NCBI GenBank assembly: GCA_017547165.1
Contig: JAFYQK010000008.1
Coordinates: 1-49,387, forward strand
From: Bacteroidaceae bacterium
Lineage (GTDB): Bacteria > Bacteroidota > Bacteroidia > Bacteroidales > Bacteroidaceae
DNA length: 49,387 nucleotides
Direction of reading: 5' to 3'
The notes under the pieces are model-generated. The model was not told the origin of the DNA. It saw only the letters and a program-made list of their open reading frames with translations, and ran no database searches. Below are positions 16,859-26,984 of this stretch, piece after piece (the stretch's first letter is position 1; every line of letters begins with the position of its first letter). The position numbers were made by a program, and so were the translations under genes.

Positions 16859-18097
16859 TTACTTTTGTCTTTTCTGCACTTTATCTGTCTCTGCCGGGAA
16901 GAAGAAGGTTTCATTCTTCGAGGCATCGGGCAAATATTGTTGTGCTATGTAGTGTCCTGGATAGTCGTGCGGATACTTGTAACCATCGCTATAACCAAGT
17001 TCGGACATAAGTTGAGTGGGAGCATTCCTCAGATGCAAGGGCACTGGCTGATTGCCTGTCTGCCGCACATACTGAAGTGCCTTGTTTATGGCATTGTAGG
17101 CACTATTGCTCTTGGGCGAAGTGGCAAGGTATACCGTGGCTTCTGCCAGGGGGATACGGCCCTCGGGCCAACCTATCTTCTGCACCGCATCGAAGGCGGC
17201 ATTGGCCAACAGCAAGGCATTGGGGTTGGCCAAACCTATATCCTCGGATGCCGAAATGACCAGTCTTCTGGCAATGAAGGCAGGGTCTTCCCCACCCTCT
17301 ATCATGCGTGCCAACCAATATATGGCGGCATCGGGGTCGCTGCCTCGTATGCTTTTGATGAAGGCCGAGATGATATCATAGTGCATCTCACCGTCCTTGT
17401 CGTATGCCAAGGGATTCTGCTGAAGGCGCTCGGCCACAAGAGTGTCGGTTATCTCAAGCACCTCATTGCCCTGTACGCTTTCGGACAGGAGTTCGAGGAT
17501 ATTGAGCAACTTGCGTGCATCGCCTCCGCTATACCTCAGCAAGGCATCGGTTTCCTTCAGTTCTATGTTTTGCTTCTTGAGCACCACATCCTTTTCAAGC
17601 ACTCTTTTGCATAGGGCAAGCAGATCTTCCTTGCCGAGCGAATTGAGCGTATACACCTGGCAACGACTCAAAAGCGGGCGTATCACCTCGAAGGAAGGAT
17701 TCTCCGTGGTAGCACCTATCAGAGTGAACACACCTTGCTCCACCGCACCGAGCAACGAATCCTGCTGACTCTTGCTGAAACGATGTATTTCGTCAATAAA
17801 AAGAATGGGACGTGATGTATTGAAAAAGTTTGTGCCTCGTGCCTTATCTATAACGTCACGCACGTCCTTCACTCCGCTCGTCACGGCAGATAGTGTAAAA
17901 AAAGGCACATCCAACGTACTGGCAATAATGGTGGCCAGTGTTGTCTTGCCAACCCCCGGAGGTCCCCACAGAATAAAACTGGAGATTCTTCCGCCCGTTA
18001 TCATTCGGCGCAAAACACCATTGGGGCCAACAAGATGCTGCTGACCGATGTAATCCTCTAACGTGCGAGGCCGCATTCTTTCTGCCAATGGTTGCAT
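16859..18097 (-). CDS. rarA: Replication-associated recombination protein A (RarA/MgsA)
   Basis: From the ATG at 18097 the protein has 412 residues and begins MQPLAERMRP followed by EDYIGQQHLVG, as RarA proteins do. Walker A is GPPGVGKTTLA (near residue 46), Walker B is ILFIDEIHRFSKSQQDSLL, and sensor/arginine-finger regions follow in GATTENPSFEVIRPLLSRC. The C-terminal half (LARMIEGGEDPAFIARRLVI, SELGYSDGYKYPHD) is the MgsA tetramerisation part. RarA is an ATPase acting at stalled replication forks. The frame extends far upstream, but a perfect -7 box at 18106-18113 and the family alignment fix the start. fhs follows after 22 bp. Confidence 0.95.
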   Translation of the reverse strand: MQPLAERMRPRTLEDYIGQQHLVGPNGVLRRMITGGRISSFILWGPPGVGKTTLATIIASTLDVPFFTLSAVTSGVKDVRDVIDKARGTNFFNTSRPILFIDEIHRFSKSQQDSLLGAVEQGVFTLIGATTENPSFEVIRPLLSRCQVYTLNSLGKEDLLALCKRVLEKDVVLKKQNIELKETDALLRYSGGDARKLLNILELLSESVQGNEVLEITDTLVAERLQQNPLAYDKDGEMHYDIISAFIKSIRGSDPDAAIYWLARMIEGGEDPAFIARRLVISASEDIGLANPNALLLANAAFDAVQKIGWPEGRIPLAEATVYLATSPKSNSAYNAINKALQYVRQTGNQPVPLHLRNAPTQLMSELGYSDGYKYPHDYPGHYIAQQYLPDASKNETFFFPAETDKVQKRQK

Positions 18098-18105
18098 AGT
18101 GGATA

Positions 18106-18113
18106 CAAAGATA
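18106..18113 (-). promoter_or_regulatory. Promoter of rarA, close to the start codon
   Basis: On the minus strand TATCTTTG ends only 8 bp before the rarA ATG. Because transcription starts a few bases beyond the -7 box, the mRNA would have almost no leader. Confidence 0.65.
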
Positions 18114-18287
18114 GCAAAATTAGGACATATTACGGGCACATGGCAAAAGAATTTGACCACACCCAAGGAAAAAGCAACAGTTGCAACACCCTTTGGCGTA
18201 TGTTTTGCATGATTTTTACTAAATTTGTATTTGGATAATTCTATTCTACCCCCAATAAAACACACTATCCATAGCAGAAACCAGCCA

Positions 18288-19160
18288 ATGACCTTGTCTA
18301 TACTGATACCATCATACAACTGGGATTGCACATCACTTGTGTACGATCTCCTTGAACAGATTCCCCAGGATGCGGAAATCATCGTGGGCAATGACAAAAG
18401 CACCTCGGAGGAAGCAATTAAGGCCTTCCAGAAGATAGCAAGCATGAAGCAATGCCGTGTCTACGAACCCAGCGAAAACCTTGGGCGCTCGCGCATACGC
18501 AACAGGCTCTTCGAACTCTCTAAGGGAGAATGGGTGCTTTTCATTGATTGCGACACAAAAATAGACAGTCCTGACTTTATACGCAATTACCTGAAGGCCA
18601 TAGAGGAACATCCTGCCGACATTTACTACGGAGGAATGAAGAACACCACGGAATGCCCCAAGGGGTGTGAACTCAGATGGACGTACGAAAAAGAAGCATC
18701 AAAACGACTTACATCCGAATACCGCCAAGCCCACCCCTTTGATTCCATGACTACGGTGAACTTCATGATCAGGCGCGATGCCTTCGTACATACAGGCTTT
18801 GACGAGAGCATAAGGAGATACGGTCACGAAGACACTCTGCTCTTTGCCAACCTTGAACGTCTGGGCAAAAGCGTCTTCCACCTAGAAAACCACATCATTC
18901 ACCTGGACATAGACACCAACCGGAAATTCCTTGCCAAGACACGCGAGTCGCTTCGTACCCTGCATTCTCTGCCTGATGACATACGTCCCAAGACCCGCAT
19001 GACGGAGATACACCGACTGCTCTGCAAATACCACCTGCACCGTGCCTTTGCTCTCCTGCACATATTCCTGCTACCCATCACCCGCAGAATCCTGTGTTCA
19101 CGTTTCGTCTCACTCCGCCTCTTCCAATTCTACAAACTGGGCTACTATTGCGGACTTTGA
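18288..19160 (+). CDS. Family 2 glycosyltransferase
   Basis: The chosen ATG gives a 290-residue protein beginning MTLSILIPSYNWD, a standard GT2 first strand. EIIVGNDKSTSEE is the second strand with its nucleotide-contacting Asp, LGRSRIRNRL follows, and WVLFIDCDTKI contains the DxD-like metal site (about residues 97-107). The acceptor-side region contains GHEDTLLFANLERLG with the ED pair expected for the catalytic base. A basic, hydrophobic C-terminus (residues 245-290) may attach it to the membrane. It would transfer a sugar from a nucleotide-sugar during glycan synthesis; donor and acceptor are unknown. It is divergent from rarA. Confidence 0.88.
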   Translation: MTLSILIPSYNWDCTSLVYDLLEQIPQDAEIIVGNDKSTSEEAIKAFQKIASMKQCRVYEPSENLGRSRIRNRLFELSKGEWVLFIDCDTKIDSPDFIRNYLKAIEEHPADIYYGGMKNTTECPKGCELRWTYEKEASKRLTSEYRQAHPFDSMTTVNFMIRRDAFVHTGFDESIRRYGHEDTLLFANLERLGKSVFHLENHIIHLDIDTNRKFLAKTRESLRTLHSLPDDIRPKTRMTEIHRLLCKYHLHRAFALLHIFLLPITRRILCSRFVSLRLFQFYKLGYYCGL

Positions 19161-19197
19161 GGGTAACGCTGAATGTTTAGAAGGCAAGAAAAAGAAG

Positions 19198-19242
19198 AAA
19201 CGGTGAGCAGATTAGTTTTCGTTCATCGTTCACCGTTTTCCA
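19198..19242 (+). terminator. Probable terminator after the glycosyltransferase
   Basis: AAACGGTGA (19198-19206) pairs with TCACCGTTT (19230-19238), followed by TCC. The loop is long (23 nt) and the T-tract short, so it is a weaker candidate than others in the window. Confidence 0.5.
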
Positions 19243-19326
19243 AAATCCATTGGGTTATTTCCCAGCACACAGTTCCGTCCTTCGGACAAGGTAAATGAGA
19301 GGGAGTCACTACCCCACTCTGTACCA

Positions 19327-20616
19327 TCATTTTTTCTCCAATGCCTCTCTAATCTGAGGCACGGCACATTTGATGAGCGTGTCCTCGTTGTGCACATCAT
19401 ATTCCATCACGGCATTCTGTAGCGCAGGCATGGCCACATTGAGCAGTTCCTGTATGCTGGCACCCTTGTGTCTGTATTGGTTTGCCAGATTGGTGACGAA
19501 GCGGGCATTTGACCACAACAACAGGTTCATTGCCTCTTCATCGCCCTGTTGTGCCTTTTCCACCAAAGCCTGCTCCTCATCGCATGAGAGCAGCTCTGCC
19601 CTGCCAATCATCAGCAGGTATTCATCAATATCGAATGGTTCTTTCTTCAGGTATTCAATAACGTTAAATGCATTCATGTCTTCTGTATTATGGTGCATAA
19701 GTTCTTTGTTATCCTGTTCACGTCGCCGTGTGACACTTTTAGTTATTACAAGTTTCCTTATTCTGCTGGTTGGCCTTTCCAGTTCACCTGCCCTATACTT
19801 CAAGAGCAGAGTTTTGTGAATCTCTTCCATTCGCTCAAGTTCGTCTTTGGGTCTATTTTCAAGCAGGGAGTCATTAACGATTTCTTCCTCTGAGGACATC
19901 GCCTCTTCCTGTTCAGCAGAGATAACTTCCCTGATGAACTTGGCCACACACTCGGGAGCATCGGGCGAGAAGGAGTTCTCGGCTGGCATGATGTGTGCAG
20001 GGCCGAAGTTGTTGACATAGTCAGCATAGGTGGACGAATCAACATCTGCACTGAAGAACAGGGTCTCAGCATTCCGTATGCCCTGGCGGTAGATCTCGTC
20101 CTCCATCTGCCGGTATTCCGTCTGCATCTGGCGTGTGAGGGTGAGATATTCTGGCTTACCAAGACTGGGCAGTTCTATGCGCGTCTTGAACTGTTTAGGG
20201 GGCAACATGTTGGCAATCATGGTGCTGGTGCTGAAATAGGGGGTTATGAGCACCTTCTTTATCTTGCCTATATCTCTGGCATGCATGGCATCTGAAAGAG
20301 CTCTGACATCTATGGGAGTGTCGATGCCATAGTTATGTTTAGCGCTTTTGAAGCAGGCTATGGTGGCTGCCGTGCTGCATGCCACTATCAGGTCGGGCCT
20401 GAGAGTATCAATCATGCACAGATGTGCAACATGGTCCACTGCGTTGCGTGGTCCTTTGGGAAGGGGATAGTACATGCAATGGTATTCTTCACCCAGAATT
20501 TTCACAAGGGATGTGAGAAGCAGGTCCTCGGTGCCCGTAAACAGATCGTCCAGAAAGAGGATGTGCTTGCGCTCGTCTCTCGTATTGGATACGTAATCGG
20601 AAAGAGGTAATCTCAT
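19327..20616 (-). CDS. Degenerate YqiA-like hydrolase domain fused to a sigma-70 region 2-like domain
   Basis: I do not know a named family for this 429-residue protein. Residues 17-230 align by eye with the neighbouring YqiA-like hydrolase: KHILFLDDLFTGTED, DLIVACSTAATIAC, KKVLITPYFST, ETLFFSADVDSS and IMPAENSFSPDA match its strands in order. The nucleophile elbow GxSxG has become A79-C-S81-T-A83, and the catalytic His is Asn 214. Residues 343-429 (LLSCDEEQALVEKAQQGDEE, ARFVTNLANQYRHKG, IQELLNVAMPALQNAVMEYD) resemble sigma-70 regions 1.2 to 2.4, but there is no region 3 or 4. A charged linker (about 238-340) joins the halves. It lies 88 bp downstream of the hydrolase gene. Function unknown; a regulatory protein is the likeliest reading. 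Confidence 0.75.
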   Translation of the reverse strand: MRLPLSDYVSNTRDERKHILFLDDLFTGTEDLLLTSLVKILGEEYHCMYYPLPKGPRNAVDHVAHLCMIDTLRPDLIVACSTAATIACFKSAKHNYGIDTPIDVRALSDAMHARDIGKIKKVLITPYFSTSTMIANMLPPKQFKTRIELPSLGKPEYLTLTRQMQTEYRQMEDEIYRQGIRNAETLFFSADVDSSTYADYVNNFGPAHIMPAENSFSPDAPECVAKFIREVISAEQEEAMSSEEEIVNDSLLENRPKDELERMEEIHKTLLLKYRAGELERPTSRIRKLVITKSVTRRREQDNKELMHHNTEDMNAFNVIEYLKKEPFDIDEYLLMIGRAELLSCDEEQALVEKAQQGDEEAMNLLLWSNARFVTNLANQYRHKGASIQELLNVAMPALQNAVMEYDVHNEDTLIKCAVPQIREALEKK

Positions 20617-20704
20617 AAGTTGTCTAAAACGAATTGGCGGGAATCGCCGTTAAAGAACGTATATAGGTGGGTTCTGAAAATTTGTTTATGTCAGGTTCTA
20701 TAAG

Positions 20705-21265
20705 CTACAAGTGATTCTGTGAATTAATGAACTGAGGGTTCTTGTCTATCCAGCCGACAATCTCCCTTGCCCCCTCCTCCGAGAGGGGATGGCCGGAGGG
20801 GATGCGGTGGCACTGCTCCTGAGGATAGTGTCGAAGGAAATGGGCTATGTACTTCTCGCCAAAGAGTTCGTCGCGGTCGCCAAAGAAGGCATGCACCATG
20901 GGGCGGTCCTCCTCTGTGATGTGCTCCTGTACCCAATGGTCGTAGGGGGCATAGGTGCGTACAATCTCGTGGGGCACGTCTATCAGTGGGAGTTCCTCGC
21001 CGGGATACCAGCAGGGGTTAACGACTATGCGGGGTATTCCGCTGAGCGTGAGCGTGATGAACGCTCCCAGCGAACTGCCCACGACAAGGTCTATGCCGTG
21101 CTCACGGATGTAGCCGAGTATCTCTTGACGAGCCTTGGCAAAGTCCGCCTGCGTGTAAGTGAACGACTCAACCATGCAGCCCTCGGGCACCAGACGCCTG
21201 AGCATGGTGCAGGTGCTCCCCTGGGCACTTCCGCCATAGCCATATATGTATAGGATCTTCTTCAT
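20705..21265 (-). CDS. YqiA/YcfP-like alpha/beta hydrolase
   Basis: The 186-residue protein is a small esterase-type hydrolase of the YqiA/UPF0227 group. It starts MKKILYIYGYGGSAQG, where GYGG forms the oxyanion region. The nucleophile elbow is VVGSSLGAF with Ser 65. FFGDRDELFG supplies the acid Asp 132 and IPSGHPLSEEG the His 159, so the triad is complete. The NPCWYPGEELP segment is also typical. A GTG at 21277 is an alternative start; the ATG at 21265 fits better. The family hydrolyses ester bonds in vitro, with natural substrates unknown. It is 17 bp downstream of a membrane protein gene and upstream of the fusion protein that carries a dead copy of this fold. Confidence 0.88.
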   Translation of the reverse strand: MKKILYIYGYGGSAQGSTCTMLRRLVPEGCMVESFTYTQADFAKARQEILGYIREHGIDLVVGSSLGAFITLTLSGIPRIVVNPCWYPGEELPLIDVPHEIVRTYAPYDHWVQEHITEEDRPMVHAFFGDRDELFGEKYIAHFLRHYPQEQCHRIPSGHPLSEEGAREIVGWIDKNPQFINSQNHL

Positions 21266-21282
21266 ATACTTTACCACAAAAA

Positions 21283-21861
21283 CTACATGGTCAATGAACT
21301 CACATAATCAAAGAATGTAACCACCGGCAGGATTATTATCGTGGCCATGCTCCAGCACTTGGCATAGATGTAGAGCACCTCCACGGCACGCCATTCTACG
21401 GACAAGGAGGAATGCTCCTCGGTGTCGATGGAGAGGAGACTCTTTCCCGTCCCCGACAGGTCGTAGCACCCGGTGGGTATGAGGGGTATGAAGAACAGGG
21501 ACAGGAACGAGTAACTGACGCTTGGCCACGAGGGGCACATGTGAAAGCGTCCGAATAGCACATTGCCGCATCCCAGTGCCGAGGAGAATGTGCGATGGCA
21601 GTAGAAGGTCTCCTGATGAGGGCGCACAAGGGATGCCGTGCGCCACAACTGGGGGTACACCACCCACTTGCACAGGAGGTAAATCGCGGCGGCCACACAG
21701 AACGCCGTAAAGCGTGTGGTGCCAACGTATCCCCATTGCACGGCCAGGTACACTACCGCCGCTATAAACAACAAGGCACACAGGGAAAGGAACAGCATCC
21801 CCCCCCCTTTCAACCTCTCCTCCCTCTCTATCTGCTCATTATAACTTGCTACATCCAGCAT
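21283..21861 (-). CDS. Hypothetical membrane protein
   Basis: I do not recognise this 192-residue protein. After a charged N-terminus (EQIEREERLKGG) there are two adjacent hydrophobic segments (about residues 21-43 and 49-66). Another follows at about 117-132 and one near the C-terminus (about 168-186), so it is an integral membrane protein, with a cysteine- and aromatic-rich part between (YCHRTFSSALGCGNVLFGRF). It sits 17 bp upstream of the YqiA-like hydrolase gene on the same strand and could share its transcript. No catalytic motif is visible. Confidence 0.65.
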   Translation of the reverse strand: MLDVASYNEQIEREERLKGGGMLFLSLCALLFIAAVVYLAVQWGYVGTTRFTAFCVAAAIYLLCKWVVYPQLWRTASLVRPHQETFYCHRTFSSALGCGNVLFGRFHMCPSWPSVSYSFLSLFFIPLIPTGCYDLSGTGKSLLSIDTEEHSSLSVEWRAVEVLYIYAKCWSMATIIILPVVTFFDYVSSLTM

Positions 21862-21920
21862 ATTGCATTGTCTCCTTTCTTGTTGTATTCTTTGTTAATG
21901 TGTTTTTTGTTTGCCGCCCC

Positions 21921-22358
21921 TTATTCAAACGGCCAGGGCACCATGTCCTCCACATCCTCGTCCACCTCTATGTCGATGCCGGGGAAGCACTGAAGCAGGG
22001 CATCGCGCAAATCCTGTTCGTCTTTCATCTCCACACGCATGACCACACATTCGGGGTCCTCGGTGTTAAGGCCTTTACGGGGTCGTTGGCATTTCCTTCT
22101 GTACTGCAGATTTTGTTCTCGACGACTATCGGCAAGTACCACTGCTGTTCTTGGTCGTTATCGTCCATAACGGTGAGGGCAAGCAACATCCAGATGCCGA
22201 AACGATTATTGGCATCCCTTTTGAATGCACCCTTGCCGTCCACCTCGACAATGTTTATGAAATCGTCTGTAGCCCCCTTAGTACGCATTCAGTTTCTGAT
22301 AAGCAGTGGTCTTGTATAGGTTCAAGACTTGTTCTTCGATTATATTTGCTACATTCAT
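21921..22358 (-). pseudogene. Broken relative of the neighbouring PD-(D/E)XK nuclease gene
   Basis: Three frames on the minus strand together look like the ruin of one or two genes. MNVANIIEEQVLNLYKTTAY starts at 22358 and stops at 22278. A second frame (22288-22025) reads TKGATDDFINIVEV and later LPIVVENKI, the ENK motif seen in both intact neighbours. A third frame (22142-21921) ends ALLQCFPGIDIEVDEDVED, which resembles the end LEQGFPGIEVETEKE of the Sel1-like protein at 24457-25515. The N-terminal nuclease section before the ENK strand is mostly missing. I infer an internal deletion plus at least two frameshifts, possibly with a fusion of two neighbouring gene types. Confidence 0.65.
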
Positions 22359-22365
22359 AATATAT

Positions 22366-23766
22366 TTATACATTATATGCACCAAACTCATTGACCAACA
22401 TCCTGCACAAATAGTTGTTCAGCTTATTCAAATAGATACTTTTCAGAAGTTCCTTCAACTCCGCCTCCTTCATCTGTGCAATGGGGTTGGGTGTCTCTAT
22501 CCTGTAACGTAGGACTGTCCTCGTGCCATCCTTGCCCAAGTCTGCCGACTGGGGCAGCATGACAGATTTACTTCTCAGATGCTCGCGCCACTTGTTGGCC
22601 AAGGCCACGTTGCGCTCTACATGAAGTTCTAGGGTGTATTCCGTGTCCGTAAACATCTTTGCAGTACTCACAGGTATCCATTCCCAATGAGCAGATTCCC
22701 ATTCGTTGCCCAGCCGTACCTGCAGGAAACCATTGTCTCCGCCAACTCCACGGTGCGTTACTGTCCACCGTACACCGCCGTGCTTCTTCAGTTCCCCTTT
22801 CCAGTGTTCGTTCAGCAGGGTTGCGGTGCTTTCTTCAAATACGCCGAAAGCCAATTGCTCCAACTTCTGAATCACCTTCCTGACAATGGCATACAGATTG
22901 TCCACAACGTGCATGTCTTCTGCGCTTCCATTGGCTATATCTTCGCGCATTTGGTTTCTCACCTCTGCCACGGCTTTGCGGAAGGCATACAGGGTGTTGC
23001 ACTGCTCCATGGTCACCTTCTTCAGATTGTGATGACCTATCACGGAGTTGCACAACTTGTCCATTCGCTGATTGTCGGAGTTGTCCTCTGCGAACAAGTC
23101 CTTTTCCAGGGACTCCACATAAGAGCGAACCACACTGGTCAACGCTTCGGGATAGATTCGTGCCTCGAGGATATCGCTCTTCAGCCAGTTTATGATGTCA
23201 CTGTTGTAGGCAAGCGGCACAAAGCGGCGGCCAATGTCTGTGCCAGCATCGCAACCATAACTCTGCTCCTCAACCTCCTTGCTGCCGTCGCCCGTCATGT
23301 AGAACACCCACACGTTGTTCACATCCACACCTTCGTCCTTTGTCATGTGCTCGATGTAGCGGGAAATCTGATTTGGCTGGTCAGGTGCATCGTAGATCTT
23401 GTTTTCCACGATGACTGCTATGCGCCTATTATTGGCGGTAAAGGTGATGAGACCGTCTATGAAACTATTTGCCGTGTCGTTCTTGTAGCGTGGATTGAAC
23501 AGGATGTTCACATCCGAGATGTTCTGGTAATGAATCATCTTGTCGCGTCCTTTGGCAAAGCGGTTCAGGAAACTATTGAGCAAAGCATATCTTCCGGAAG
23601 CATCCCAGTACCGCATCAGTGCCAGGAACATCTTGGTATGTTCGTTCTCGCTCATCTTCCATGCTGTAAAGAGGTTGTAAGGGTTCTGGACCTTGCTTGC
23701 ACGGTGGCTGGAACCTTCAATGAGTTCAGCCACTTCCTTAATCTTCTGTACTGTCCAGTTTGTCAT
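22366..23766 (-). CDS. PD-(D/E)XK nuclease-superfamily protein
   Basis: The 466-residue protein shows the core of the PD-(D/E)XK_4-type family. SENEHTKMFLALM (about residues 39-51) is the N-terminal helix with its Glu, FIDGLI contains Asp 104, and AVIVENKIYDAPDQPNQ gives Glu 121 and Lys 123 of the ENK motif with a Gln shortly after. These residues bind the metal in family nucleases. The remaining 300 residues are mixed helical and strand sequence without a known domain; the region near NGFLQVRLGNEWESAHWEW looks like a beta sheet. Biological role unknown; relatives are often found in defence or mobile regions. It begins 59 bp from the next gene, and its stop lies 8 bp from the remains of a relative. 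Confidence 0.82.
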   Translation of the reverse strand: MTNWTVQKIKEVAELIEGSSHRASKVQNPYNLFTAWKMSENEHTKMFLALMRYWDASGRYALLNSFLNRFAKGRDKMIHYQNISDVNILFNPRYKNDTANSFIDGLITFTANNRRIAVIVENKIYDAPDQPNQISRYIEHMTKDEGVDVNNVWVFYMTGDGSKEVEEQSYGCDAGTDIGRRFVPLAYNSDIINWLKSDILEARIYPEALTSVVRSYVESLEKDLFAEDNSDNQRMDKLCNSVIGHHNLKKVTMEQCNTLYAFRKAVAEVRNQMREDIANGSAEDMHVVDNLYAIVRKVIQKLEQLAFGVFEESTATLLNEHWKGELKKHGGVRWTVTHRGVGGDNGFLQVRLGNEWESAHWEWIPVSTAKMFTDTEYTLELHVERNVALANKWREHLRSKSVMLPQSADLGKDGTRTVLRYRIETPNPIAQMKEAELKELLKSIYLNKLNNYLCRMLVNEFGAYNV

Positions 23767-23825
23767 AATATGCTTTTATTATTTGGGGGTAGGTAATGTT
23801 TGATGACAGTTTCTAAATGCCTCAG

Positions 23826-24374
23826 TTAGTTTGACTTTTCCTTTATCAGATGATGTACTGACTGGGGAAGCAATTGTTTGAAATGCTCCTCTGTTCCTGG
23901 TGCCACATATATGCCACGCATCCGGTTAACGAATTTTTCGCTCTCCATCTTTTCGATTAGGGCAGGACTCACAGTGATGAGAGTGGAGGGCAGATGCAGT
24001 TCGCGCAAAGTAAGTGTGTCTATCTTGTCGAGTCGCAGTTCGGTTACGCCCTCAGGAACTTCCAATGCCTTACAATGGAATAATTGCCCCCACTCTATCA
24101 CTCTTTCTACACTCTTGGTGATGGTGCGGTAATTTACGCAGCCACGGCGGACTATCGTTGAATTTCTTTTTGCAATGTAGAAATACGTATAGTCGTCTTC
24201 CTGCGCCTCTTTGTATACATCAGTGAAATCAAGGCTAAAGTAAGGGCATGAACCCTCCTCGTTGTGGACTACAGCTTCCGTGTTCAGACAGAAGTTGATA
24301 AAAGACTCGTCCGAGTCAAAATAGATAGCCTTTTTAAGAGGTCGTGTAGCACTTGAATATACCATTTTCGCCAT
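23826..24374 (-). CDS. Hypothetical protein with LRR_5/BspA-like tail
   Basis: This 182-residue protein is not recognised as a whole. Its C-terminal third (GVTELRLDKIDTLTLRELHL, PSTLITVSPALIEKM, GIYVAPGTEEHFKQLLP) has the rhythm of BspA-type leucine-rich repeats, including the characteristic final IYV-x-PGTxExFKxLLP segment. The N-terminal part (residues 1-85) has no clear family; YFYIAKRNSTIVRRGCVN may be a beta hairpin. No signal peptide is seen, so unlike surface BspA proteins it is probably cytoplasmic. It lies between the nuclease-like gene and the Sel1-like gene on the same strand. The LRR reading is an inference from a short region. Confidence 0.6.
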   Translation of the reverse strand: MAKMVYSSATRPLKKAIYFDSDESFINFCLNTEAVVHNEEGSCPYFSLDFTDVYKEAQEDDYTYFYIAKRNSTIVRRGCVNYRTITKSVERVIEWGQLFHCKALEVPEGVTELRLDKIDTLTLRELHLPSTLITVSPALIEKMESEKFVNRMRGIYVAPGTEEHFKQLLPQSVHHLIKEKSN

Positions 24375-24456: not shown

Positions 24457-25515
24457 TTACTCCTTCTCTGTCTCCACCTCTATACCAGGGAAACCCTGTT
24501 CGAGGACATGGGGCCATACATACGTCTGTTCCACCTCCATGGTGAGGGAAAGGGTGCCGTCGGGCTGGTCTTCCATGAACAGGAGGTTGCCCCAGTAATT
24601 CGGTGCCTTGGACTTTATTCCCAAGAGTACCTGTAGCAGTATGGGGGTGGGCACATAGCGACCGAACTCGTTGCCGGGCATGCCGTACTTTTCAGTCAGC
24701 TTGTCTATGGTAGCCCTTACCTTGTCCAGCACCTGGGCAGGTCCAGACAGACTATAATGGCAGGTTAGTGAACATCTCTCATAGTCTTCCCAATCCTTCT
24801 CGTCAAAATCCTCCATAGGGTTGCCCCATAGCATGAAGGTCTCGTCGCCCGTGGCGTGCTTTATCTCCTGTGCCTTGGCATAGTACTCCCTGGCCTTGGC
24901 TATGTCTATATAGTAGCCGCAATGCTCCTCGCCATAGTAGTACGCATCGCCCAACACCTCGCATATCCAGCCGTAGAGGGGTGAAAGTCCGAGTTCGTAG
25001 GCAGGGACTTGCTCCTCCATCTGCCTTTTCTTCTTCTCCACGATGGCCATCTCGTTGAACGGGGTTGCGTCCACCCAGTCAACCACCATGCGCACATCGG
25101 CATCTGGCAGGTCGGCGGCGCAGATCTTGCCGTACAATGCCCGGGCCTCGTTCTTGTCCCTCTCAAACCATGAGGTACCTTCAACCAACTCCGTACGCTC
25201 TATGACCACCTCTTCGCCCGTGTCTTCGTCCGTGAACAGTTCGTCATAGTAACGGTATTTCTCCCTGTACATGCCTGCCAGAACTATGCAGTCGGCCTTT
25301 AGGTTGTCCAGGGCAAGGAGCCATTGCTTGTCCTCCGCCTCCAGCATGTCGAGGAACTTGCCTTGAAGGTCACCGTCCTCCAGCAGGGCATTCAGCACCT
25401 GGGAGGCCAAATCCTTGTTTCCCTGGCGCACCTGGCCAAGCATGGCAGCAAACTCGTCAACTCGCATCTGCTGTGCGTCCCTGTGCTGAGTCTCTTGAAT
25501 ATTGTTCTCTTCCAT
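24457..25515 (-). CDS. Hypothetical protein with Sel1-like repeat
   Basis: The 352-residue protein begins MEENNIQETQ. An upstream in-frame start is open to 25557, but the ATG at 25515 is preferred because it precedes the first sensible acidic sequence. The middle section, LYGWICEVLGDAYYYGEE then DIAKAREYYAKAQEIKHATG (about residues 185-230), resembles one Sel1-like (TPR-type) helical hairpin, normally a protein-protein contact module. The C-terminal part (residues 245-352) contains KAPNYWGNLLFMEDQPDGTL and ends LEQGFPGIEVETEKE, a tail also found in the pseudogene at 21921-22358. It is very acidic. Function unknown; it may be an accessory or immunity-type partner of the nuclease-like proteins. 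Confidence 0.6.
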   Translation of the reverse strand: MEENNIQETQHRDAQQMRVDEFAAMLGQVRQGNKDLASQVLNALLEDGDLQGKFLDMLEAEDKQWLLALDNLKADCIVLAGMYREKYRYYDELFTDEDTGEEVVIERTELVEGTSWFERDKNEARALYGKICAADLPDADVRMVVDWVDATPFNEMAIVEKKKRQMEEQVPAYELGLSPLYGWICEVLGDAYYYGEEHCGYYIDIAKAREYYAKAQEIKHATGDETFMLWGNPMEDFDEKDWEDYERCSLTCHYSLSGPAQVLDKVRATIDKLTEKYGMPGNEFGRYVPTPILLQVLLGIKSKAPNYWGNLLFMEDQPDGTLSLTMEVEQTYVWPHVLEQGFPGIEVETEKE

Positions 25516-25578
25516 ATCTTGATGTTTTTTTGGTAACGAAGTTGTTCGTGCTCTCACGCATATATATAATATAGCAAC

Positions 25579-25658: not shown

Positions 25659-26984
25659 CTATGGAGCAATACATGCCTTAATGATCGGCAAGCCAAGAAC
25701 CATTTTCAAAATTTCCTCTGGAGTTGTGGAAGTACCACTATTCAGCAGTGCAGAGACACCTTGGTCAATTTTGTCAACTTTTTGTTGTATTGCTCCTATA
25801 ATCTTCTGATAAAATGCTTTTCTTGCGGCGGCATCATTAATATCACCACATTTTATATTCTCAAGGTCTGAGTTATCCAACAATGTTATACCTATATTCA
25901 TGTCATGATTGCCAAATAAATGTGCATATTCAAGATAATTTTCTTTTGTTTTAGGTGCAAGATGAGCAACACCTAATTTCAAAGTGTTAAGGCAGCCTTT
26001 ATTCAAGAACGCTTGTGTATTGCCGGCAAAAATAAAGAGAGAGGGAATAGAATACTTGCGAGAATCGAGATTCGCCCATGACTTCTTATATAAATTGATG
26101 TATGTTGGTGTGAAATGAAGCACCCACTCACCTCCTACATCACCAGAGAAAATAGCCTCTGCACGAGCCTCTAATTGCTTGCGCAATGATTTCTGGACGT
26201 TCTCTGGCACAGCCTTCTCGTTTTTATCTATAACACCTAACAAAGTGTTATATTTCTCCACATCTTTTCCTTGCAACCCTAACACAAATGTGTCCACAAC
26301 TTCTGAAGTCTCTTCTGCCAAGAACTGCTTCAAGAAAGCAATATATTGTTGCACACCAGCAATCATCAAGCCGTCTGTACCATATGTGAGATTGGGCAAC
26401 ACATCCTCTTCTAACCATGGCAAGACTAAATCTTTATAGTTGACGGCATAATAATTGATTTTGTCTTTGAGGGCAGATGGCAGGCTATCATCAGAAGGTT
26501 CCTTTGTGCCATCTGCAGTGAGATAAACCACGTAGATGTTGTTTTTGACATTGACATTACGATTATTGTACCAATTATCGTACCAATCCTCAAACTTATC
26601 TTTATCTACTTCATCTACTGTAGCGATGTAGCGTGCCAACTGTTTTTCAGTATCGCCTGCGCCATAAATCTTATTTTCAATGATAACATGAACATCATCG
26701 TACTGAATGTACAAATCTATGAAACCGGTTCCCTTGGGGCCTATAGCCTTCTTTTGATCGGTGATGCAGACAGGCCTCTGGGTGGGCATAGGCAAACCGA
26801 TCCTTTCCAAAAATGAATTCAAGAAGTGAGAATTGCTGTTCTGCAACAGGCATTTCAAGACTTTTGTGTTTGCATTCTCATTGGCATTTGCCAAGTCAAA
26901 AAGCAAAAACTTGCCATTCTTAGCCTCATACTCTTTGTAAAACTCGCTGACAAGATTCCCTTGGTCAATTGTTACGTTTTTCAT
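25659..26984 (-). CDS. PD-(D/E)XK nuclease-superfamily protein (second copy)
   Basis: The 441-residue protein shares the layout of the gene at 22366-23766. NENANTKVLKCLLQ (about residues 35-48) is the N-terminal helix, FIDLYIQ holds Asp 90, and VHVIIENKIYGAGDTEKQ supplies Glu 103 and Lys 105 with a Gln at 115. The rest is diverged: the two proteins are paralogues only in the first 150 or so residues by eye, with another shared stretch NNIYVVYLTADGTKE versus NNVWVFYMTGDGSKE (about 155-170). The gene looks richer in A and T than the flanking housekeeping genes, consistent with separate acquisition. It has its own promoter at 27028-27058. Function unknown. Confidence 0.82.
   Translation of the reverse strand: MKNVTIDQGNLVSEFYKEYEAKNGKFLLFDLANANENANTKVLKCLLQNSNSHFLNSFLERIGLPMPTQRPVCITDQKKAIGPKGTGFIDLYIQYDDVHVIIENKIYGAGDTEKQLARYIATVDEVDKDKFEDWYDNWYNNRNVNVKNNIYVVYLTADGTKEPSDDSLPSALKDKINYYAVNYKDLVLPWLEEDVLPNLTYGTDGLMIAGVQQYIAFLKQFLAEETSEVVDTFVLGLQGKDVEKYNTLLGVIDKNEKAVPENVQKSLRKQLEARAEAIFSGDVGGEWVLHFTPTYINLYKKSWANLDSRKYSIPSLFIFAGNTQAFLNKGCLNTLKLGVAHLAPKTKENYLEYAHLFGNHDMNIGITLLDNSDLENIKCGDINDAAARKAFYQKIIGAIQQKVDKIDQGVSALLNSGTSTTPEEILKMVLGLPIIKACIAP

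What the first reader, a model, noticed from the sequence alone, without database searches (positions are those of the whole stretch)
19327..21265. A dead copy of a YqiA-like hydrolase fused to a sigma-like domain, next to the live hydrolase
The protein at 19327-20616 can be aligned by eye with the adjacent 186-residue hydrolase along its whole length: elbow A-C-S81-T-A against G-S-S65-L-G, FFSADVD against FFGDRDE, and Asn 214 at the place of His 159. The nucleophile Ser survives but the elbow glycines and the His do not, so it is likely a pseudoenzyme. Duplication of an enzyme followed by fusion to a transcription-factor-like tail suggests a sensor that binds the same ligand as the enzyme and reports it to RNA polymerase. 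I know of no named family with this domain pair.
Basis: partly seen in the sequence, partly recalled or inferred. Interest (0 to 1): 0.75.

Follow-up and report, generated by a model that had tools for sequence, protein, structure and literature searches.

The report
Dead hydrolase fused to sigma-factor fragment
A bacterium, probably of the gut family Bacteroidaceae, encodes a protein that joins a hydrolase that looks inactive to the front part of the main transcription sigma factor, with the residues that open promoters changed; the same fragment joined to another enzyme elsewhere suggests a reusable regulatory or decoy part of unknown role.

Summary
The gene is real: minus strand, 19327-20616, 429 aa. 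Residues 1-235 are a catalytically degenerate YqiA-type hydrolase domain. Residues 314-429 are regions 1.2 to about 2.3 of the housekeeping sigma factor RpoD, with the promoter-melting Trp pair replaced (AVWWIRQ to AVPQIRE) and a core-contact Glu lost. Both parts show purifying selection. The sigma fragment, found in 11 genomes, forms one clade apart from RpoD. It occurs alone, with an extra domain, fused to an NT5C nucleotidase (2 genomes), or with the pseudo-hydrolase; live YqiA is itself fused to NT5C elsewhere. In 4 of 13 module-bearing genomes a PDDEXK_4 gene, some labelled candidate phage defence, lies within 10 kb. Best reading: a sigma-2 mimic (works like PhyR, not a member) that binds a protein partner of RpoD, not promoters; this step is inferred. 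No family model searched covers the fusion, and no paper seen describes it. Both structure predictions were uninformative.

The parts
19327..20616 (-). fusion protein, 429 aa: pseudo-YqiA domain, linker, RpoD-derived sigma fragment
19912..20616 (-). residues 1-235: catalytically degenerate YqiA/UPF0227-like hydrolase domain with the lid segment of the long YqiA type
20374..20376 (-). Ser81, elbow ACSTA; Gly in the G240, G392 and G456 copies
19975..19977 (-). Asn214 at the catalytic His position
19678..19911 (-). residues 236-313: linker; dN/dS 0.32-0.65 over 6 pairs, mostly higher than in the domains
19723..19761 (-). residues 286-298, IRKLVITKSVTRR, resembling the RpoD N-terminus MRQLKITKSITSR
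   Evidence: 17.6 bits; 1 of 20,000 shuffles as high
19330..19677 (-). residues 314-429: RpoD regions 1.2 to about 2.3 (mini-sigma); a separate ORF whose likely start is the same Met in G240, G392 and G456
19348..19365 (-). AVPQIR (residues 418-423) in place of the RpoD melting motif AVWWIR
20705..21265 (-). short YqiA-like hydrolase, 186 aa, with Ser65, Asp and His159; neighbour, not a required partner
21283..21861 (-). 192-aa protein, membrane protein by eye; a relative lies next to the pseudo-YqiA gene in G465
22366..23766 (-). PDDEXK_4 protein, PADLOC PDC-S26
25659..26984 (-). second PDDEXK_4 protein, PADLOC PDC-S26

Best explanation
The protein is a sigma-domain-2 mimic with a ligand- or protein-binding head. 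Shown by sequence: the head belongs to the YqiA-type hydrolase superfamily by profile homology and has lost most of the catalytic set; the tail is RpoD regions 1.2 to about 2.3 without regions 3 and 4, with the melting Trp pair and a core-contact Glu replaced while much of the helical skeleton is kept. Inferred: the tail does not direct transcription. It binds, through the kept sigma-2 surface, a protein that normally binds RpoD, and so frees or spares RpoD, as PhyR does for its own sigma factor. The head senses a ligand or docks to a partner and controls this. Fusion is not essential, since in three relatives the two parts are neighbouring ORFs.
For: Head: 24.0 bits; best of 20,000 shuffles 8.7; 97.7%, E 1.7e-12; oxyanion HG, S-x-G Gly and His lost in 6 of 6 pseudo-enzyme rows; HG, Ser, S-x-G Gly, Asp and His kept in 33 of 33 long enzymes; the 3 short ones keep Ser, S-x-G Gly, Asp and His. 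Tail: (11 rows against 72 RpoD rows: Trp108 and Trp109 kept in 1 of 11, Glu82 in 0 of 11, but Leu79, Leu87, Ala90, Gly73, Tyr69 and Arg111 in 11 of 11). The 11 form one side of one branch, 100/100, against 20 sampled RpoD rows and one other sigma factor (its bootstrap had not settled). Selection: dN/dS 0.16-0.33 over 6 head pairs, 0.10-0.39 over 10 tail pairs. The modules stay together in G000, G208, G240, G392 and G456; in G208 the contig begins 38 residues before the end of the head. Precedent: PhyR (PMC4598750, passages).
Against: No partner protein is identified. No useful structure: pLDDT 34.9 for the fusion. [quoted passage not shown] this has only sigma-2. dS between genera is near saturation, so those ratios are rough. 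Distribution is narrow: the head is found in 4 of 139 genomes of the genus, and the G241 copy is a remnant. The head also occurs without the tail nearby (G513, G465) and the tail without the head nearby (G312, G320, G323, G326, G328, G021), so neither depends on the other everywhere.
Confidence: 0.42

Rival explanations
1. RNA-polymerase tether or competitor: the tail still docks weakly on the beta-prime coiled coil and lowers RpoD occupancy or brings the head to RNA polymerase.
For: Region 2.1-2.2 skeleton positions kept in 11 of 11 and Asp78 changed only to Glu in 10 of 11; the RpoD-like N-terminus remnant in the linker.
Against: Glu82 kept in 0 of 11 and Asn84 in 3 of 11; that these are core contacts is recalled from sigma-70 numbering.
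Confidence: 0.25
2. Anti-phage guard or decoy: the sigma fragment is bait for phage factors that seize RpoD, and the attached or neighbouring protein (pseudo-YqiA, NT5C nucleotidase, PDDEXK_4) gives the response.
For: Pfam finds 12 PDDEXK_4 genes in 7 of 13 module-bearing genomes; in 4 of these 7 one lies within 10 kb of a module (0.084 expected, P 5e-7; without the window 3 of 6, P 2e-5). PADLOC labels the window pair PDC-S26, and likewise relatives in G208, G323 and G230. The MZA defence system has a sigma factor, MzaA (PMC9523054, one passage). Inactive domains as decoys for phage inhibitors are proposed for BREX-related systems (PMC12839542, passages).
Against: The 10-kb limit and the gene family were chosen after seeing the window; one of the four genomes (G513) has the head only; 6 of 13 genomes have no PDDEXK_4 by Pfam; six of ten neighbours scanned had no PADLOC hit. 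Islands collect many genes. Pattern scans of viral contigs found no relatives, and no PADLOC model hits the whole fusion at E 0.01.
Confidence: 0.13
3. Chance gene fusion on the way to decay, without function.
For: Fused in only two close genomes; the two parts are separate in three different ways in G240, G392 and G456; remnant in G241; narrow spread.
Against: dN/dS under 1 in both domains, also between the two close split copies (0.33 and 0.39); pair kept in three genera; AVPxxR signature in 10 of 11 fragments.
Confidence: 0.12
4. One reading: recent duplicate of the adjacent hydrolase that senses the same ligand and reports it to RNA polymerase.
For: Adjacent in G000 and G240; same superfamily.
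Against: Separate clades, both 100/100; the lid segment is absent from the neighbour; the modules occur in G392 and G456 without it in the fetched stretches, and relatives of it occur in G230 and G238 without the pseudo-hydrolase.
Confidence: 0.05

Closest known systems
PhyR (alphaproteobacterial sigma-factor mimic; PMC4598750, passages)
   Same: Sigma-like domain joined to a sensory domain; reported not to act as a sigma factor
   Different: [quoted passage not shown] here RpoD-derived sigma-2 only, a hydrolase-like head, partner unknown
RpoD / SigA group-1 sigma factor
   Same: Regions 1.2 to about 2.3; 35% identity to the own RpoD over residues 324-425
   Different: No regions 3 and 4; AVWWIRQ changed to AVPQIRE; Glu82 lost
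YqiA / UPF0227 (PF05728) esterases
   Same: Homology by profile over the domain, including the lid segment of the long type
   Different: Oxyanion HG, S-x-G Gly and His lost
RsbQ-RsbP of the Bacillus sigma-B pathway (PMC4598750, passages)
   Same: A hydrolase protein in a sigma regulatory pathway
   Different: RsbQ is a separate protein acting with the phosphatase RsbP; no sigma fragment
MzaA of the MZA defence system (PMC9523054, one passage; PADLOC PDLC02203)
   Same: Sigma factor in a defence system; the tail of L132 (NT5C fusion) hits the model at E 1.5e-19
   Different: The model matches complete RpoD (403-666 of 683); the window tail gives only E 0.0022

Membership tests
YqiA/UPF0227 hydrolase | homology over the whole domain | tested here: met
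   PF05728 itself does not hit the window protein
YqiA/UPF0227 hydrolase | catalytic set: oxyanion HG, nucleophile elbow, Asp, His | tested here: not met
   only Ser and Asp remain in this copy; Ser is Gly in 3 of the 6 pseudo-enzyme rows
sigma-70 group 1 | regions 1.2 and 2 | tested here: met
   Pfam Sigma70_r1_2 E 0.00096, under its cut-off, and no Sigma70_r2 hit for the window protein
sigma-70 group 1 | regions 3 and 4 | tested here: not met
   the ORF ends at about RpoD position 117
sigma-70 group 1 | melting Trp pair and region 2.2 core contacts | tested here: not met
   roles of the single residues recalled
PhyR | receiver domain and sigma-4-like part | tested here: not met
   no such hits
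PhyR | binds an anti-sigma factor | not testable with these tools
   needs a binding assay
MZA defence | complete sigma-like MzaA | tested here: not met
MZA defence | MzaBCDE partners | not tested
   no search was made for them
RsbQ | active hydrolase triad (recalled) | tested here: not met
RsbQ | RsbP-type phosphatase partner | not tested
   no search was made for it

The most novel reading that the evidence does not exclude
A single RpoD-derived sigma-2 fragment has become a portable bait or adaptor domain that is shuffled among a small set of proteins (NT5C nucleotidase, pseudo-YqiA, an unnamed C-terminal domain) in candidate defence islands of Bacteroidaceae, so that attack on the housekeeping sigma factor is sensed through a mimic of its surface. 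The fusions YqiA+NT5C, NT5C+sigma and pseudo-YqiA+sigma form a closed triangle that points to one pathway.
Probability: 0.12. Interest if true: 0.9.

Novelty: new variant of a known kind. Interest (0 to 1): 0.6.

Why it matters
Sigma-factor mimicry has been described for PhyR-type proteins built from ECF sigma factors. A mimic cut from the essential housekeeping sigma factor, joined to a pseudo-enzyme or a nucleotidase, would be a new way of linking metabolism or infection sensing to transcription, and its partner would be a new RpoD-binding protein in Bacteroidota. The triangle of fusions also gives a testable functional link for the YqiA-NT5C fusion proteins seen here in five genomes of two genera.

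Tried and rejected
Direct homology of the two neighbours by BLASTP: none. Single-sequence AlphaFold2 of the fusion and of the live hydrolase: pLDDT 34.9 and 41.0; no fold search was made, because weak models give meaningless matches. Viral contigs: pattern scans found no relatives of the fusion, of the pseudo-YqiA profile A6, of the mini-sigma profile A4 or of long YqiA A7.

Rows dropped before counts; 17 of 101 genomes matched at E 1, of which 4 (G000, G240, G208, G241) are real head matches; the other 13 have E 0.03 or worse. G280 (L051, E 3.6e-5) was judged unrelated by eye from its ORF; of 10 genomes, G069, G388, G514 and G535 have complete YqiA motifs and were not counted as pseudo-enzymes; 99 of 139 and 51 of 399 genomes matched the mini-sigma profiles, mostly through RpoD itself; as fragments I kept 8 (G000, G208, G240, G312, G320, G323, G326, G328) and 6 (G000, G326, G392, G456, G328, G021); a short frame in G244 is a contig-cut RpoD. 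Fragments scoring below RpoD would have been missed.

Programmed frameshift or readthrough at the split junctions was considered (G456 has an in-frame TAA, G392 a change of frame); nothing supported it and it was not pursued. PADLOC hits of the mini-sigma to MzaA reflect general RpoD similarity. Rfam: nothing at gathering score in 18000-24000. Promoter-like sites in 19000-22400: 2, shuffles 3.7 on average; terminator-like sites: 7, shuffles 2.7; neither was used.

Full report
What is there. The ORF lies on the minus strand, 20616 down to 19327 (429 aa). Its first residues, MRLPL..........RDERKHILFL, are nearly shared by G240, G392 and G456, so the start is likely right. Upstream on the same strand are a 186-aa YqiA-like hydrolase (20705-21265), a protein that looks like a membrane protein (21283-21861), and, further on, two PDDEXK_4 proteins.

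The head. Pfam finds nothing for residues 1-280 and NCBIfam nothing before residue 237 at E 1; BLASTP against the live neighbour finds nothing. A profile of 29 long-type YqiA proteins, taken from loci fetched, scores the head at 24.0 bits; the best of 20,000 shuffles of the same residues scores 8.7. Profile-profile comparison gives 97.7% probability and E 1.7e-12. The match includes a lid segment of about 28 profile positions that the live neighbour lacks. In the motif table of 42 rows, 33 of 33 long enzymes keep oxyanion HG, Ser, the Gly of S-x-G, Asp and His (the residue two before the Ser is Ala, not Gly, in two of them, the own-genome enzyme among them); the 3 short ones keep Ser, the Gly of S-x-G, Asp and His, with YG for HG. 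The 6 head rows (window, G240, G392, G456, G513, G465) lost HG, the Gly of S-x-G and the His in 6 of 6; the Ser column is Ser in 3 and Gly in 3; the Asp column is Asp in 4 of 6. The IQ-TREE tree puts the 6 in one clade (100/100) and the 3 short enzymes in another (100/100). The head is therefore not a recent copy of the neighbour.

The tail. NCBIfam gives sigma-factor models from E 3.7e-9, all far under their whole-protein cut-offs; PDB SigA gives E 1.1e-7. Eleven such fragments were aligned with 72 RpoD rows. Of the positions at least 97% conserved in RpoD, they keep I25, E36, L39, D47, L54, F61, Q68, Y69, G73, L79, L87, A90, A106, V107 and R111 in 11 of 11; W108 and W109 in 1 of 11; E82 in 0; D78 in 0 (Glu in 10); N84 in 3. 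That these are the promoter-melting and core-contact residues is recalled from sigma-70 work; that sigma-2 contacts the beta-prime coiled coil through region 2.2 and the -10 element through 2.3-2.4 was read in PMC4598750 (passages). The window fragment ends at about RpoD position 117, so regions 3 and 4 are absent. The 11 fragments form one side of one branch, 100/100, against 20 sampled RpoD rows and one other sigma factor (the bootstrap had not fully settled).

Relatives and gene order. The head profile finds 4 of 139 genomes of the genus (G000, G240, a remnant in G241, a contig-cut copy in G208). A wider profile finds 10 of 399 family genomes: G000, G241, G392, G456, two more distant pseudo-enzymes (G513, G465) and four complete YqiA enzymes. 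Head and mini-sigma are together in G000, G208, G240, G392 and G456. They are fused in G000 and G208 (90% identical over the shared part), and adjacent ORFs in G240, G392 (different frame) and G456 (same frame with a stop between). The likely start Met of the separate ORFs corresponds to Met314. No mini-sigma was found for G241 (its only match at E 1e-17 is RpoD), nor for G513 and G465 at E 1e-31 (G513 shows RpoD only, and G465 is not among the genomes with a match) or in their fetched stretches. The linker carries IRKLVITKSVTRR, like the RpoD start MRQLKITKSITSR (17.6 bits; 1 of 20,000 shuffles as high for the window, 0 to 2 for three relatives). This suggests that a longer RpoD piece was once joined to the head, in which case the splits are later. 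The opposite order, a late fusion in the line of G000 and G208, needs fewer events and is not excluded.

Selection. Nei-Gojobori dN/dS: head 0.16-0.33 over 6 pairs, mini-sigma 0.10-0.39 over 10 pairs, linker 0.32-0.65 over 6 pairs. Between genera pS is 0.55-0.70 for head and tail (leaving out the close pair G392-G456), near saturation, so those values are rough. The close pairs (G392-G456: 0.33 head, 0.39 tail; window-G208 tail: 0.18) are not saturated.

The sigma fragment elsewhere. It stands alone in G312 and G320, carries an extra C-terminal stretch in G326 and G323 (209 aa), and is fused behind an NT5C nucleotidase in G328 and G021 (NT5C, Sigma70_r1_2 and Sigma70_r2 all above Pfam cut-offs). 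The G021 copy keeps AVWWIRQ and branches nearest to RpoD. An NT5C gene also stands behind the mini-sigma in G240 and, after one small ORF, in G392. Live YqiA fused to NT5C: of 8 long ORFs scanned, 5 pass both Pfam cut-offs (G001, G031, G054 of one genus; G023, G049 of another), 1 has a weak NT5C hit and 2 none (genera). The three proteins therefore occur in all three pairwise fusions, though the YqiA partner of the sigma fragment is the degenerate one.

Surroundings. Pfam finds 12 PDDEXK_4 genes in 7 of 13 module-bearing genomes (G241 was left out). In 4 of these 7 (G000, G323, G328, G513; G513 has the head only) one lies within 10 kb of the module. From gene counts and rounded genome sizes the expectation is 0.084 genomes, P 5e-7; without the window 3 of 6, P 2e-5. 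Limit and family were chosen after looking at the window. PADLOC labels the two window proteins PDC-S26; of ten further neighbours scanned, three hit PDC-S26, one hit IetA-type ATPases and six nothing at E 1e-5. G312 has an AAA ATPase (PADLOC REase_II) and a likely McrC partner (recalled; no PADLOC hit) beside its mini-sigma. A protein next to the pair in G456 groups with the window's PDDEXK_4 proteins by BLASTP, though Pfam and PADLOC do not detect it.

How it most likely works. The kept sigma-2 skeleton with changed promoter and core contacts points to a mimic that binds an RpoD-binding protein, controlled by the degenerate hydrolase head. The closest working model is PhyR (PMC4598750, passages). 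RsbQ shows that a hydrolase protein can feed a sigma pathway (same paper, passages). Partner, ligand and output are unknown. The defence reading rests on neighbourhood and on MzaA being called a sigma factor (PMC9523054, one passage).

Novelty. No hit in Pfam, NCBIfam, PADLOC or PHROGs spans both parts. None of the papers listed by nine searches of open full text describes the fusion. Each listing shows 4 to 15 papers; one search matched 24,759 papers, mostly on taxon names, and tells little; two searches asked about YqiA and PADLOC labels only. Subscription papers are mostly missing and preprints are not held. Esterase activity of a YqiA/YcfP relative was seen only in a search listing (PMC13230378).

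Limits. Structure predictions gave no usable model.

Noticed in passing
L054, L055, L056, L061, L064 (1.1-kb ORFs): Live YqiA hydrolase fused to an NT5C nucleotidase (362 aa) in five genomes of two genera; function unknown.
   Followed up: partly
L206:3537-4319: NT5C nucleotidase fused to a bacterial PH domain (bPH_3) in G230, in the same stretch as a short YqiA-like hydrolase.
   Followed up: no
L199:71-628: A 185-aa protein of the G513 island starts MRQLKIIKLKK, like the RpoD N-terminus; a relative follows the mini-sigma in G456.
   Followed up: no
L122:4632-5357, L208:8169-8462, L156:2353-3141, L200:6283-7125, L199:5050-5895: An unnamed protein family lies next to the mini-sigma (G326, G323) or to the pseudo-YqiA gene (G392, G465, G513); no Pfam hit at E 0.1 for the three members scanned.
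   Followed up: partly
window 21283-21861: Protein that looks like a membrane protein, with a relative directly beside the pseudo-YqiA gene in G465.
   Followed up: partly
window 23826-24374 and 24457-25557: Proteins without Pfam hits at E 0.1 whose relatives occur in mini-sigma loci of G326, and of G312, G320 and G323, respectively.
   Followed up: no
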